DNA of 64,000 nt from an uncultured Bacteroidales bacterium (GTDB lineage: Bacteria; Bacteroidota; Bacteroidia; Bacteroidales; Paludibacteraceae): contig CADCEV010000016.1 of NCBI GenBank assembly GCA_902800525.1, forward strand, positions 25,312-89,311. The letters are read 5' to 3'. The translations under genes were made by a program, and so were the position numbers. Positions 344 through 63,910 of this stretch are shown here, one piece after another (position 1 is the first letter of the stretch; every line of letters begins with the position of its first letter). The notes below the pieces were generated by a model that ran no database searches, was not told where the DNA came from, and saw nothing but the letters and a program-made list of their open reading frames with translations.

Positions 344-670
344 TCAGACGGTAGCGGGTTGGACGACGGTAGCGGGTTTTTTGATCTTTTCGAAGGCTTT
401 GAGGAGCGTTGGGACGTCGGTTTTGGAGGGATTGTATGTGACGGTAACGGTTTTGGTTTTGAGGTCACAGACGATGTCCTTGACGCCTTTCTCAAAGGCT
501 ATGTTCTTCATGATTTTGTCAATACAGCCCTGGCAATGGAGGTCCACAGAGAGGACCACTATCTGCTTATCGGGCTTTGCCGCGTACGCGTTGCACAATT
601 CACAATTCACAATTCTTAGCCCTAAAAGGGGTGAAAGGAGTAGCAAGGCTACTAAGATATATTTTTTCAT
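344..670 (-). CDS. Exported heavy-metal-associated (HMA) domain protein
   Basis: About 108 residues. An N-terminal signal peptide (residues 1-18) is followed by one HMA fold with the metal-binding pair C46-x-x-C49 in the stretch VDLHCQGC. HMA domains bind Cu+ or similar soft metals as chaperones. The start at 670 was chosen because it opens directly on the signal peptide; longer in-frame starts add an arginine-rich segment lying inside feoB. The gene begins 8 bp after the feoB stop, so the two are almost certainly one operon. A heptamer array (595-615) encodes part of the linker, residues 19-26, and supplies an extra C-x-x-C (C23, C26). Role in iron or copper handling is inferred. Confidence 0.75.
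   Translation of the reverse strand: MKKYILVALLLLSPLLGLRIVNCELCNAYAAKPDKQIVVLSVDLHCQGCIDKIMKNIAFEKGVKDIVCDLKTKTVTVTYNPSKTDVPTLLKAFEKIKKPATVVQPATV
595..615. repeat. ACAATTC heptamer array, 3 units, inside the HMA gene
   Basis: Three perfect ACAATTC units. They are translated within the HMA protein as the segment around RIVNCELC, between the signal peptide and the metal-binding domain. Just beside it, 617-640 resembles the CCCTAAAAGG palindromic element seen in the TonB receptor at 50.4 kb. Confidence 0.85.
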
Positions 671-678
671 ATAAAACA

Positions 679-2355
679 TTACACTAAAATTATATTTCCG
701 ATCTGATAGACGAGGAAGGAGATGAGCCAGGCGAGGGCGAGGGAATGGAAAACGGTGAACCATGCCCAGACTTTGCCGGCTTCGCGTCTGAGGGTTGCAA
801 TCGTCGCCACACAGGGGAAATAGAGCAAGACGAAGAGCATGAAAGAGAACGCCGTGAGCGGTGTGAAACCTGCGGCAGAGATGTCTCCGCCGTAGAGGAT
901 AGCGAGCGTGGAGACAATCGCTTCCTTAGCAGGAAGGCCTGTGAGGAGACAGACGGACATTTTCCAATCAAAGCCCAAGGGTCCGAGAACCGGAGAAACG
1001 GCTTTTCCAATCATGGCGAGATAGGAGTTCTCCAAGTCTTCCAAGTTTTGAGTCGGGAAAAACTCCAAAGCCCAGATGATGATCGATGCCCATAAAATGA
1101 CCGTACAGATCTTCTGCAGGTAGTCGGCTACACGCTCCCAGATATGTGCGACGGTATTGCGCGCTTTGGGGAGACGGAAGAGCGGTAACTCGTTGACGGT
1201 ATCGTCGTTCTCCTGTTTGAACCACGGGGTGCGCTTCATGATAAAAGCAAAGAGCACGGAGAGACAAATGCCTATCGCGTAGAGTGAGATCATGACGAGG
1301 GCTTTGTGGTTTTGGAAGAAGGTATCGACGAAGAGCATATAGACCGGTAGTCGTGCCGAACAGGACATGAAAGGTACCATGAGCATGGTGAGTATGCGGT
1401 CCTTGGGGTTTTGTATATCCCTTGCCGCCATGATAGCGGGCACGTTGCAACCGAAGCCCATGAGCATTGGTACGAAGGAGCGTCCGTGAAGCCCGACTCG
1501 GTGCATGACCGTATCCATGATAAACGCCTCGCGCGCCATATATCCGCTGTCTTCCATGATCGAGATGAAGAAGAAGAGGATGATGATATTGGGCAGGAAA
1601 GCGAGCACCGCTCCGACACCTTTGAGCACGCCGTCGATGAAGAGGGATGAGAGCCAGTGGCTTTCCGCTCCATGGTGTGCGAGGATGTTGGTGAGCCATC
1701 CGCAGAGGGCGTCGATGCCGTTTTCTATCCATTCTTGCGGGTACGCGCCCAGGGTGAAAGTACACCAGAAGACGAAATAGAGGATAGCGAGCATGATCGG
1801 GAAACCGAGCCAGGGGTTGGTGAGGACCTTATCGATCTTCTCCAGCCGGGTCTGTTCCCGGTCATCCTTGGCGTGCGTGAGCGTTTGTGTGAGGACGCCA
1901 TGTACATATGCGGCATAGGTATCCTCGTCTCCCTGGTCGCGGAGGTGATAGATCGGGTGCGCGGTAGAAGCCGGCTTGGCGGCTACCTCTTTGACGAGTT
2001 CCAAGCAGTTGGTCATGCCATAATTCAGGCGGACGGAGAGGCGGCAAGTGGGCACACCGATCAGCTCTTGCAGTTTGGGTATATTGAGGGAGTGATCGGT
2101 TGCCAAAAGGAGATCATAGCGACCGATAGCGAGGACGATCTTCTGCTCCTCGTCGATGATATGCGGTGTGAGCATGAGTGATTCCTCGAGCCGCGTTGCA
2201 TCGACGACCTGCAGAACGACCTCATAGGCATGGCTATGGAGCCGGTCCAAGTCATGCACCTCCTCAAAGACCATTCCCTGAGGAGCTATGCGTTGCAAGG
2301 CTTCACAGAGGGAAGTTTTGCCGCTTTGCGCTATACCGACAACTGCTATTTTCAT
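679..2355 (-). CDS. feoB: FeoB-type ferrous iron transporter with a reduced G domain
   Basis: A 558-residue inner-membrane Fe(II) permease. The N-terminal G domain has a P-loop (GIAQSGKTS, residues 7-15), but I see no DxxG motif and the usual N-x-x-D is replaced by GRYD, so nucleotide binding may be altered. The membrane part has the FeoB Gate motifs (FGCNVPAIMAAR, then SCSARLPVY) and the second Gate copy near GLPAKEAIVSTL. FeoB proteins are commonly 700-800 residues; the shortening is in the G domain and no FeoA domain is fused. The start at 2355 begins directly with the P-loop strand. An HMA gene follows 8 bp later. The promoter lies so close that the mRNA is probably almost leaderless. Confidence 0.88.
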   Translation of the reverse strand: MKIAVVGIAQSGKTSLCEALQRIAPQGMVFEEVHDLDRLHSHAYEVVLQVVDATRLEESLMLTPHIIDEEQKIVLAIGRYDLLLATDHSLNIPKLQELIGVPTCRLSVRLNYGMTNCLELVKEVAAKPASTAHPIYHLRDQGDEDTYAAYVHGVLTQTLTHAKDDREQTRLEKIDKVLTNPWLGFPIMLAILYFVFWCTFTLGAYPQEWIENGIDALCGWLTNILAHHGAESHWLSSLFIDGVLKGVGAVLAFLPNIIILFFFISIMEDSGYMAREAFIMDTVMHRVGLHGRSFVPMLMGFGCNVPAIMAARDIQNPKDRILTMLMVPFMSCSARLPVYMLFVDTFFQNHKALVMISLYAIGICLSVLFAFIMKRTPWFKQENDDTVNELPLFRLPKARNTVAHIWERVADYLQKICTVILWASIIIWALEFFPTQNLEDLENSYLAMIGKAVSPVLGPLGFDWKMSVCLLTGLPAKEAIVSTLAILYGGDISAAGFTPLTAFSFMLFVLLYFPCVATIATLRREAGKVWAWFTVFHSLALAWLISFLVYQIGNIILV

Positions 2356-62667: not shown

Positions 62668-62674
62668 GATTGAG

Positions 62675-63910
62675 TTAGCTAAGCATCATTATTGTTTTTT
62701 TCAACGCCGCGATCAACGCATCCACGTCCGTTTGGTCGTTATACAAGCCGAAGGACACTCTTACTGTTCCCGGAACGCCGAGTTCGTCAATCAGCGGTTC
62801 TGCACAATGGTGTCCCGTTCGAACCGCTACGCCTTGCTGGTCAAGGAGCGTGCCGATGTCGAAAGGATGGAGGAGGGATAGTTGAGAGTTGAGAGTTGAG
62901 AGTTGAGAGTAAACGTTGAAACTGATGACACCGGCTTTGGGCTGGTTAGCGGCATAGATATGTACGCCTTCGATTGCCGCCAATTGGGTTTCGCAGTACT
63001 GCGTCAGTTCGCGTTCATGGGCTTCGAGTGCTTTCCAACCGATGGATTGAATGTATTCGATGGCTTTATGAAGCGCGTGTGAACCCACAAAATTCGGTGT
63101 TCCGGCTTCGAACTTATAGGGCAGCTGGTTGTAAGTAGTGCCTGTCCAACGCACATGATCGATCATCTCTCCTCCTCCTTCAGCCGGCGGCAGTTGTTCG
63201 AGCCATGCGCGTTTGCCGTACAGCACGCCGATGCCTGTCGGAGCATACATCTTATGTCCTGAGAAGACCAGAAAATCGCAGCCGAGCGCTTGCACATCTA
63301 CCGGCATATGCGGTACACTCTGTGCGCCATCAATACAAACAGGGATGTTGCGTTCATGCGCCAGACGGATGATCTCTTCGACGGGATTGATAATTCCGAG
63401 CACGTTACTCACATGCGCCACGGAGACGAGTTTCGTTTTTTCGCTTAGAAGGCCCTTAAAAGCCTCTATATCGAGCGTTAAGTCCTCGCGCAGGGGAATA
63501 TGCCGCAGGGAAGCTTTCTTGCGCTCACAGAGCATTTGCCAGGGAACGATGTTCGAATGATGCTCTACTCCGCTCACGATGATCTCATCGCCCTCATGGA
63601 TGAAAGCTTCTCCAAAGGAGAAAGCGAGTGTGTTCAGGCTGTCGGTCGTACCTTTGGTGAAGATGATCTCATCGGAACTGTCCGCTCCGATGAAAGCCGC
63701 TACCGCTTTGCGCGCTTCCTCATGCTTCATTGTAGCCACTTGGCTCAGATGATGCACGCCGCGATGGATATTACTGTTCCAGTGGCTGTATGCTTCCACG
63801 ATCGCCTCTATCACAGCCTGCGGCTTCTGGCTCGTAGCGGCATTATCAAGATAGACTAACGGTCGTCCGTGAACGGTCTCTTGTAATATGGGAAAATCTG
63901 ATCTATTCAT
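62675..63910 (-). CDS. sufS: Cysteine desulfurase, SufS type
   Basis: 411 residues; PLP enzyme delivering sulfur for Fe-S cluster assembly. YLDNAATSQKPQAVIEAI, GVEHHSNIVPWQ, FSGHKMYAPTGIGVLYGK (PLP Lys), and the active-site Cys in RTGHHCAEPL. A segment SQLSTLNSQLSLL (about residues 343-355), before HPFDIGTLLDQ, is encoded by four GTTGAGA heptamers. It keeps the frame. An upstream gene may end 10 bp away. Confidence 0.94.
   Translation of the reverse strand: MNRSDFPILQETVHGRPLVYLDNAATSQKPQAVIEAIVEAYSHWNSNIHRGVHHLSQVATMKHEEARKAVAAFIGADSSDEIIFTKGTTDSLNTLAFSFGEAFIHEGDEIIVSGVEHHSNIVPWQMLCERKKASLRHIPLREDLTLDIEAFKGLLSEKTKLVSVAHVSNVLGIINPVEEIIRLAHERNIPVCIDGAQSVPHMPVDVQALGCDFLVFSGHKMYAPTGIGVLYGKRAWLEQLPPAEGGGEMIDHVRWTGTTYNQLPYKFEAGTPNFVGSHALHKAIEYIQSIGWKALEAHERELTQYCETQLAAIEGVHIYAANQPKAGVISFNVYSQLSTLNSQLSLLHPFDIGTLLDQQGVAVRTGHHCAEPLIDELGVPGTVRVSFGLYNDQTDVDALIAALKKTIMMLS
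62881..62908. repeat. GTTGAGA heptamer array, 4 units, inside sufS
   Basis: Four perfect GTTGAGA units (28 bp), followed by a partial unit. Translated as SQLSTLNSQLS. Confidence 0.93.

What the first reader, a model, noticed from the sequence alone, without database searches (positions are those of the whole stretch)
595..62908. Heptamer tandem repeats inserted in frame into many conserved genes
Arrays of 3-5 imperfect 7-bp units (AATTGAC, TAATTGA, AATTCAC, GTTGAGA, GTTGAAA, ATTGTGA) lie inside the HMA gene (595-615), pepD (3403-3448, 7/8 bp), a membrane protein (10294-10328), ileS (16582-16616 and 16899-16933), gtrA (30613-30647), rsmA (45394-45421), nadA (46962-46989) and sufS (62881-62908). 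Similar arrays lie between genes (2411-2484, 4938-4985). Three 7-bp units make a 7-residue coding period, so the proteins carry near-repeats such as NYQLSTVNYQL and NSQFT. The host genes are housekeeping enzymes, so the inserts must be tolerated. They recall the STRR heptamers of heterocystous cyanobacteria, but here they sit in coding sequence and vary in unit. How they arise is unknown to me.
Basis: partly seen in the sequence, partly recalled or inferred. Interest (0 to 1): 0.85.

Follow-up and report, generated by a model that had tools for sequence, protein, structure and literature searches.

The report
Seven-base repeats swapped inside essential genes
In a group of gut and rumen bacteria, short runs of a seven-letter DNA repeat turn up at the same few loops of everyday enzymes, often with a different repeat in different species, which suggests that a poorly understood process keeps writing small repeats into genes that must stay readable.

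Summary
The window is part of a 2.39-Mb Bacteroidales MAG whose nearest relatives are Paludibacteraceae. Period-7 arrays occur at 120-172 per Mb here, against 0 in shuffles and 20 in loci of other families. All nine listed coding arrays lie in open frames. In relatives the same sites of pepD, sufS, rsmA, nadA, gtrA and ileS hold other heptamers, palindromic repeats or none. In 96 distinct ileS genes, 68 arrays lie on 6 sites, with up to 9 units per site; shared descent explains part of this. Array-free alleles show, on average, no local seed for the unit. Coding length differences are multiples of 3 in 77 of 82 comparisons. Outside ileS, coding arrays were seen only near the window's clade (40 of 82 arrays, against 0 of 17 elsewhere). 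The two most array-rich genomes sampled have no reverse transcriptase match. Best reading: a clade-specific burst of heptamer elements, filtered by frame and fold at tolerant loops. Heptamer excess and rare cases inside ORFs are already in print; the scale and same-site swapping look new. The mechanism is open.

The parts
594..615 (-). (GAATTGT)3 array at the end of the leader of an HMA-domain protein (ORF 344-763, minus)
2410..2482 (.). 73-bp array (AATTTAC/AATTCAC/AATGCAC) at the 3' end of pepD; related arrays at many other places of the genome
2862..2949 (-). about 87-bp palindrome-rich dispersed repeat inside pepD, in-frame insertion of about 29 aa; further copies in the genome
3403..3448 (-). 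7/8-bp array (sense CAATCGT) in a pepD loop; 16 of 29 anchored members carry an array here, mostly of other units
4072..4103 (.). intergenic array AATTGAA
4938..4985 (.). intergenic 7/8-bp array after ORF 4145-4936
10294..10327 (-). array (TAATTGA on +) coding NQLSIINYQLSI in a hydrophobic 175-aa frame, 10202-10729
16582..16616 (-). IleS site 2, CTCAATT/GTCAATT array, NSQLSIVNCQF, predicted hairpin turn near the C terminus
16899..16933 (-). IleS site 1, CAATTAT/CAACTGT array, NYQLSTVNYQL, predicted beta hairpin
30609..30644 (-). array in gtrA (ORF 30314-30817); other period-7 units at the same place in relatives
45393..45421 (+). AGTTGAA array in rsmA (LVESLKLKVE), same site with other repeats in relatives
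45518..45550 (+). AATTAAA array across the rsmA stop and the start of the next frame
46962..46990 (+). AATTCAC array in nadA (FIINNSQFT)
53122..53157 (-). AAGAATT/AAAAATT array in a metallo-beta-lactamase-fold gene (EELRIKNEELKI)
62880..62910 (-). CTCAACT array in sufS (YSQLSTLNSQL), falling on gaps in the best solved SufS relative
58968..59969 (-). distant RAYT-like (REP-associated tyrosine transposase) gene; candidate mover of the palindromic repeats, not shown

Best explanation
A clade of Paludibacteraceae has undergone a burst of very short dispersed elements: heptamer arrays, commonly of about 4-5 units (30-35 bp), with a set of palindromic repeats beside them. They are laid down across the genome on both strands. 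In genes only those survive that keep the frame, have no stop and fit a flexible turn, so they collect at a few indel-tolerant loops. There they are gained, overwritten by other units or palindromes, resized in frame, or eroded into ordinary protein sequence. Shown: period, density, clade gradient, same-site variety, frame, and lack of a local seed on average. Inferred: that the array arrives as a ready-made or separately templated repeat (copied from elsewhere, or written by an enzyme) and is later homogenised and resized by slippage or recombination.
For: Density and clade gradient, ileS left out: 109 per Mb with 30 CDS arrays of 65 in 34 loci with IleS identity >=84%; 57 per Mb and 10 of 17 in 17 loci at 77-84%; 22 per Mb and 0 of 10 in 29 loci below 77%; 20 per Mb and 0 of 7 in 20 other-family loci. 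ileS: 68 arrays in 49 of 96 distinct genes fall on 6 sites; random placement, which ignores descent, gives 22.3 on average, minimum 16 of 300 trials; 9 units in 14 arrays at residue ~220 and 8 in 8 at ~769. pepD: 16 of 29 anchored members have an array; mean within-array period identity 0.90, mean between-species array identity 0.57 in each flank bin from 0.70 to 0.90 and 0.59 for the single pair above 0.90; by eye both orientations occur there. Frame: length difference 0 mod 3 in 77 of 82 coding comparisons, with +24, +21 and +63 cases. No seed on average: mean chance rank 0.62 and 0.58 over 44 array-free alleles. Lengths of 30-35 bp: 37 of 72 arrays in G000 (27 of 53 outside called genes) and 98 of 178 in named loci. 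Unit dispersal in the host genome: (CAAYTNT)n has 148 match positions in G000, 50 in G034, 4 each in close relatives G002 and G004. Hairpin placement in IleS.
Against: IleS site 1 looks mostly inherited: array identity is 1.00 at flank identity >=0.95 and 0.92 at 0.90-0.95, then about 0.8. The length peak is weak in G034 (25 of 71 at 30-35 bp, 13 of 47 outside genes). Some alleles do match the unit, notably L013:16040 (chance rank 0.02 and 0.00) and the L045 and L048 arrays (0.02-0.11), and about a dozen of the 44 are ileS site 1, so they are not independent. Unit sharing within one genome is weak outside G000: 146 of 1000 permutations reach the exact-unit value and 27 of 1000 the one-mismatch value (earlier version 73 and 33 of 500). 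For AAATCAC, two of the four genomes with that unit in pepD or sufS rank high (19, 13) but two do not (5, 4), and G003 (17) and G079 (12) rank high without it. No source or moving enzyme is identified. Steps of 3 units look like ordinary slippage. Some ileS swaps also change the flanks (L090 against L015), so exchange between species contributes. The gene caller was trained on G000 and calls only 65% of the other-family loci as coding, so coding arrays there may be missed.
Confidence: 0.5

Rival explanations
1. Local replication slippage: a chance heptamer duplicates and expands where it lies, favoured at 7 nt by the polymerase; selection then keeps in-frame cases at loops, and descent spreads them.
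For: Heptanucleotides were reported as the most abundant long repeats in most genomes and a polymerase contact of 7 nt was proposed (Mrazek 2007 as told in PMC4679880, passages read). Units are very varied; in-frame steps of 21 bp and multiples; unit sharing within genomes is weak outside G000; ileS site 1 behaves as inherited; a few alleles do hold a seed.
Against: No seed on average in 44 array-free alleles, including the near pairs L047/L045 and L074/L075. One unit family stands at many places in G000 but hardly in two close relatives. In G000 lengths peak at 32-34 bp instead of falling off from short arrays.
Confidence: 0.32
2. A dedicated mobile or writing enzyme, for example the RAYT-like transposase or a reverse transcriptase, lays down the arrays.
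For: RAYT-like gene in the window, with matches at 7 places of G000; palindromic repeats share the loops.
Against: No RVT_1 match in G000 or G034, and 14 of 61 genus genomes have one. G004 (96% complete) has no RAYT-like match, yet 3 arrays in 70 kb and pattern hits. The RAYT match is below the curated cut-off.
Confidence: 0.08
3. The protein motif came first and the DNA periodicity follows from a conserved repeat peptide.
For: In IleS site 1 several distant relatives share YQL(S/T)TVNY(Q/R)L with eroded DNA periodicity.
Against: Arrays occur between genes; at the pepD site units, and by eye orientation, differ between close species.
Confidence: 0.04
4. Assembly or binning artefact.
For: The window and the relatives are metagenome-assembled; some records are fragmentary.
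Against: Same sites with different, open-frame arrays in many genome records.
Confidence: 0.02

Closest known systems
TAACTGA heptamer repeats of Beggiatoaceae, cyanobacteria and five Bacteroidetes (PMC4679880; passages read)
   Same: Heptamer tandem sets; reverse orientation open and translated as an LSVISYQ-like peptide; 10 sets interior to ORFs in the BOGUAY genome; one set in what the paper calls a surface loop of an RNA polymerase beta-prime-like protein; no mechanism known.
   Different: One fixed unit, near relatives rarely repeated, mostly just upstream of start codons. Here units vary freely, many genes are hit, and the same loop holds different units in different species.
Heptamer STRR and G-rich heptamers of cyanobacteria and Xanthomonas (PMC4692102, passages read; the name STRR is recalled)
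   Same: Period 7, dispersed, several unit variants, preferred number of units (four in that paper).
   Different: [quoted passage not shown] ours are mostly A/T-rich, often about 5 units, and found in many genes.
Rickettsia palindromic elements (recalled; search listings only)
   Same: Small repeats inserted in frame into genes; the 87-bp pepD element and hairpins in other loops work like this.
   Different: Heptamer arrays are tandem, shorter, not palindromic; sequence relation not tested.
Constant-size tandem repeats of Bacillus (PMC8161180, passages read)
   Same: Fixed unit length with variable sequence.
   Different: Units of 20-21 or 52 nt; [quoted passage not shown]

Membership tests
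Cyanobacterial-type STRR heptamers | tandem 7-bp units, dispersed | tested here: met
Cyanobacterial-type STRR heptamers | mainly intergenic | tested here: inconclusive
   18 CDS, 24 edge, 23 intergenic of 65 by a crude gene caller that misses at least two coding cases in the window; below the 83% coding share
TAACTGA repeats | unit TAACTGA | tested here: not met
   not among the consensus units of the 59 G000 arrays
TAACTGA repeats | just upstream of start codons | not tested
   gene starts are too crude here
Phase-variation repeats (contingency loci) | unit number switches the frame on and off | tested here: not met
   between species only: 77 of 82 coding length differences are multiples of 3; within-strain variation not testable
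Diversity-generating retroelement or other RT-driven system | reverse transcriptase in the genome | tested here: not met
   no RVT_1 match in G000 (93% complete) or G034 (97%)
REP/RAYT system | RAYT gene | tested here: inconclusive
   NF047646 E 1.8e-7 but 31 bits against cut-off 80
REP/RAYT system | elements are palindromic and match the RAYT's flanks | not tested
   palindromic repeats seen, link to the gene not examined
Rickettsia palindromic elements | in-frame palindromic repeat in genes, several copies | tested here: met
   pepD 2862-2949 only, not the heptamers: 47 aa against 18 aa in 19 of 30 members, and copies elsewhere
Rickettsia palindromic elements | sequence relation to the Rickettsia elements | not tested
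   no comparison was run

The most novel reading that the evidence does not exclude
The arrays are products of an unrecognised generator that writes about five-unit heptamer runs, with a unit characteristic of the species, at sites that carry no seed and without a resident reverse transcriptase: a class of sub-50-bp mobile or templated DNA that repeatedly rewrites the same loops of essential proteins.
Probability: 0.28. Interest if true: 0.88.

Novelty: new variant of a known kind. Interest (0 to 1): 0.67.

Why it matters
Why bacteria prefer 7-bp repeats, and how such repeats spread, is an old open question. This clade gives many homologous coding sites where filled, empty, swapped and eroded states can be compared under a strict reading-frame filter, so slippage, copying and enzymatic writing become separable. 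It also shows repeat DNA turning into conserved protein sequence in essential enzymes.

Tried and rejected
Local-seed expansion was tested and found no support on average, with a few exceptions. A reverse transcriptase was tested and has no match where arrays are densest. A species-wide unit pool was tested on named loci and is only weakly supported. Unit GC does not follow genome GC (Spearman 0.07 and 0.10). The G022 sample (83 kb) was dropped from conclusions: 19 of its 20 pieces are short contigs and its GC is 35%. In one search the rsmA anchors matched only 8 of 30 members, sufS had 3 arrays, and ileS site-1 anchors matched 72 of 96. One search used 86 of 96 ileS genes. One search left the ileS gene out of every named locus; inside ileS, members below 77% (L088, L074, L068, L066) do carry arrays. 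The gene caller is home-made, trained on G000, and missed gtrA and the 10202-10729 frame, so CDS counts are lower bounds. Named and unnamed relatives overlap (L046 and G034 look like one genome or near twins); only identical ileS genes were merged (111 to 96). Many comparisons share ancestry and are not independent. In one search the spanning relatives include the window's own copies (L189, L219, L249, L159), which count as no evidence. The output was cut in the middle, so I saw part of its two tables.
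Full report
What and where. The window is G000:C16:25312-89311 of a 2,388,893-base assembly in 33 contigs, 92.7% complete. Its IleS relatives are Bacteroidales and Paludibacteraceae MAGs, many with rumen or gut sources in their titles.

Observation. The arrays are there, at the stated places within a few bases. With a fixed score threshold, period 7 gives 172 arrays per Mb in the window, 120 in 400 kb of the same genome, 92 in 80 named relatives' loci (1.62 Mb, centred on ileS) and 20 in 20 loci of other families, with 0 in one Markov-1 shuffle of each locus. 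Periods 5-6 and 8-12 give at most 47 (period 11). Of 65 arrays in the window and the own sample, 18 were called inside genes, 24 across a gene edge and 23 between genes, while 83% of the sequence was called coding. So arrays are depleted in genes but far from absent. The gene caller misses at least two coding cases in the window, gtrA (Pfam GtrA) and a hydrophobic frame.

Same site, different repeat. IleS site 1 reads CAATTAT/CAACTGT in the window, TTTCAAC x4 in L015 and others, TTTCGAC x4 in L011 and L014, ATTACGA x4 in L016 and L019, and palindrome-like sequence in L024, L036 and L044. L039 has a palindrome-like stretch inside a TTTCAAC array, and many relatives have no array. In 30 genus members each of sufS, nadA, rsmA and pepD (the window's own among them), the loop under the window's array holds other heptamers, hairpins or no repeat. 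In nadA this is mild: 23 of 30 have a plain 29-aa loop, L190 and L193 have related arrays, and L199 a hairpin. gtrA behaves like pepD in the best relatives shown. In pepD the arrays are internally regular (0.90) but unlike each other (0.57) beside flanks of 70-90% identity, and by eye both strand orientations occur. IleS site 1 is different: arrays are identical at flank identity >=0.95 and grow apart as the flanks do, so there descent with slow change is the main story. Over 96 distinct ileS genes, 68 arrays in 49 genes fall on 6 sites; random placement gives 22.3 (minimum 16 in 300 trials), but that null ignores shared descent. The better sign is variety: residue about 220 has 9 units in 14 arrays and residue about 769 has 8 units in 8 arrays. 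Protein length varies at these sites (standard deviation 2.9-6.8 against a median of 1.3), in part because of the arrays themselves. On an ileS tree of 86 rows with the sites left out, the site-1 state (with 'none' as one state) needs 28 changes. Some of these reflect exchange of longer stretches between species, since the flanks change too (L090 against L015).

Clade. With ileS left out, array density falls from 109 to 57 to 22 per Mb with distance from the window's species; coding arrays go from 30 of 65 to 10 of 17 to 0 of 10, and 0 of 7 in other families. The gene caller was trained on G000 and covers only 65% of the other-family loci, so the last figure may miss coding cases. Within ileS, members of the distant group do carry arrays (L088, L074, L068, L066), so the limit is one of degree.

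Frame and fold. Of 147 coding arrays queried, 82 have an array-free relative; the length difference is a multiple of 3 in 77 of them, and 29 are zero, some being eroded arrays. Gains include +24 (L047 against L045, flanks aligned to the edge), +21 (L074 against L075) and +63 (L088 against L068). The 20 non-coding comparisons spread over all three remainders (10, 5, 5). A prediction of the IleS C-terminal domain (31 sequences, mean pLDDT 79.6, pTM 0.51) places array 1 on a hairpin (strands 86-88 and 95-97) and array 2 on the turn between strands 186-192 and 201-205. Against the best solved relatives, the sufS array falls on gaps (5vpr), the nadA array begins in a 4-residue gap with a 1-residue gap just after it, and the rsmA array overlaps a 9-residue gap. 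By eye, arrays in turns read like NYQLSTVNYQL and the rsmA one like ESLKLKVE, which suggests that fold filters the unit; this was not tested.

Origin. Array-free alleles hold no partial unit beyond chance on average (44 alleles, mean rank 0.62 and 0.58). Exceptions are L013:16040 (0.02 and 0.00) and the L045 and L048 arrays (0.02-0.11), and about a dozen alleles are ileS site 1. In G000 one unit family has 148 match positions, with 50 in G034, 18 in G030, 15 in G035 and 4 each in G002 and G004; overlapping matches count apart, and G000 has 34 for the reversed control pattern. Other tests of a species unit pool are weak. Lengths of 30-35 bp make up 37 of 72 arrays in G000, 98 of 178 in named loci, but only 25 of 71 in G034; 14 of the 72 in G000 are exactly 34 bp. 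Neither G000 nor G034 has a reverse transcriptase match; 14 of 61 genus genomes do. A RAYT-like family matches in 32 of 61 genomes searched (26 of 37 in the genus, 6 of 24 weakly in other families), at 7 places in G000 and none in G004. It is a lead for the palindromes rather than for the heptamers.

A related element. pepD also carries, at 2862-2949, an in-frame stretch of about 29 aa made of a palindrome-rich dispersed repeat. The loop is 47 aa here, 44 in L250 and 18 in 19 of 30 members. BLAST finds 14 matches in 141 loci, 7 of them in G000 including the window's own; five of those G000 pieces had been fetched because one search pointed to them. By eye a reversed copy sits in rsmA of L222 at the place where the window has its heptamers.

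Known background. Heptamer excess in bacteria, a 7-nt polymerase-contact idea, TAACTGA sets in some Bacteroidetes, and a few sets inside ORFs including one in a surface loop are in print (PMC4679880, passages read). PMC4692102 and PMC8161180 were read as passages. My searches for heptamers or in-frame repeats of this kind (listings only) showed no paper that I recognised as describing this clade; that covers only the open-licence library searched and the listed rows.

Verdict. It is a new variant of a known kind (dispersed heptamer repeats), unusual for its scale in essential genes and for swapping at the same sites. The molecular source of the arrays is not settled.

Noticed in passing
2862-2949: Dispersed palindrome-rich repeat forming an in-frame insertion of about 29 aa in pepD; copies elsewhere in G000 and G034, and by eye a reversed copy in rsmA of L222.
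   Followed up: partly
58968-59969: Distant RAYT-like transposase gene, with matches at 7 places of the genome; 23-bp tandem repeats (58852-58963) lie right beside it and a similar motif inside it (59592-59621).
   Followed up: partly
53905-54701: Stretch between the metallo-beta-lactamase-fold gene and the 3' end of a BspA-like leucine-rich-repeat gene, packed with different short tandem arrays (7, 8, 11 and 16 bp).
   Followed up: no
window, own sample and named loci: Period 11 is a second, weaker excess (47, 25 and 38 arrays per Mb, against 9 in other families).
   Followed up: no
L132 about 390-1260 and window 594-640: Several heptamer arrays end in TTAGCCCTAAAGGGC-type hairpins or follow TTGGC..GCCAA hairpins, hinting at composite elements (by eye).
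   Followed up: no
25143-25232: Intergenic 9-bp array (TTTCGTAAT / TACGTAAAC).
   Followed up: no
L088:10650-12413: One ileS gene with three long arrays of the same unit family (GCCAATC/GCCAATA), 48, 63 and 78 bp longer than the array-free relatives compared, all multiples of 3.
   Followed up: partly
   Followed up: no
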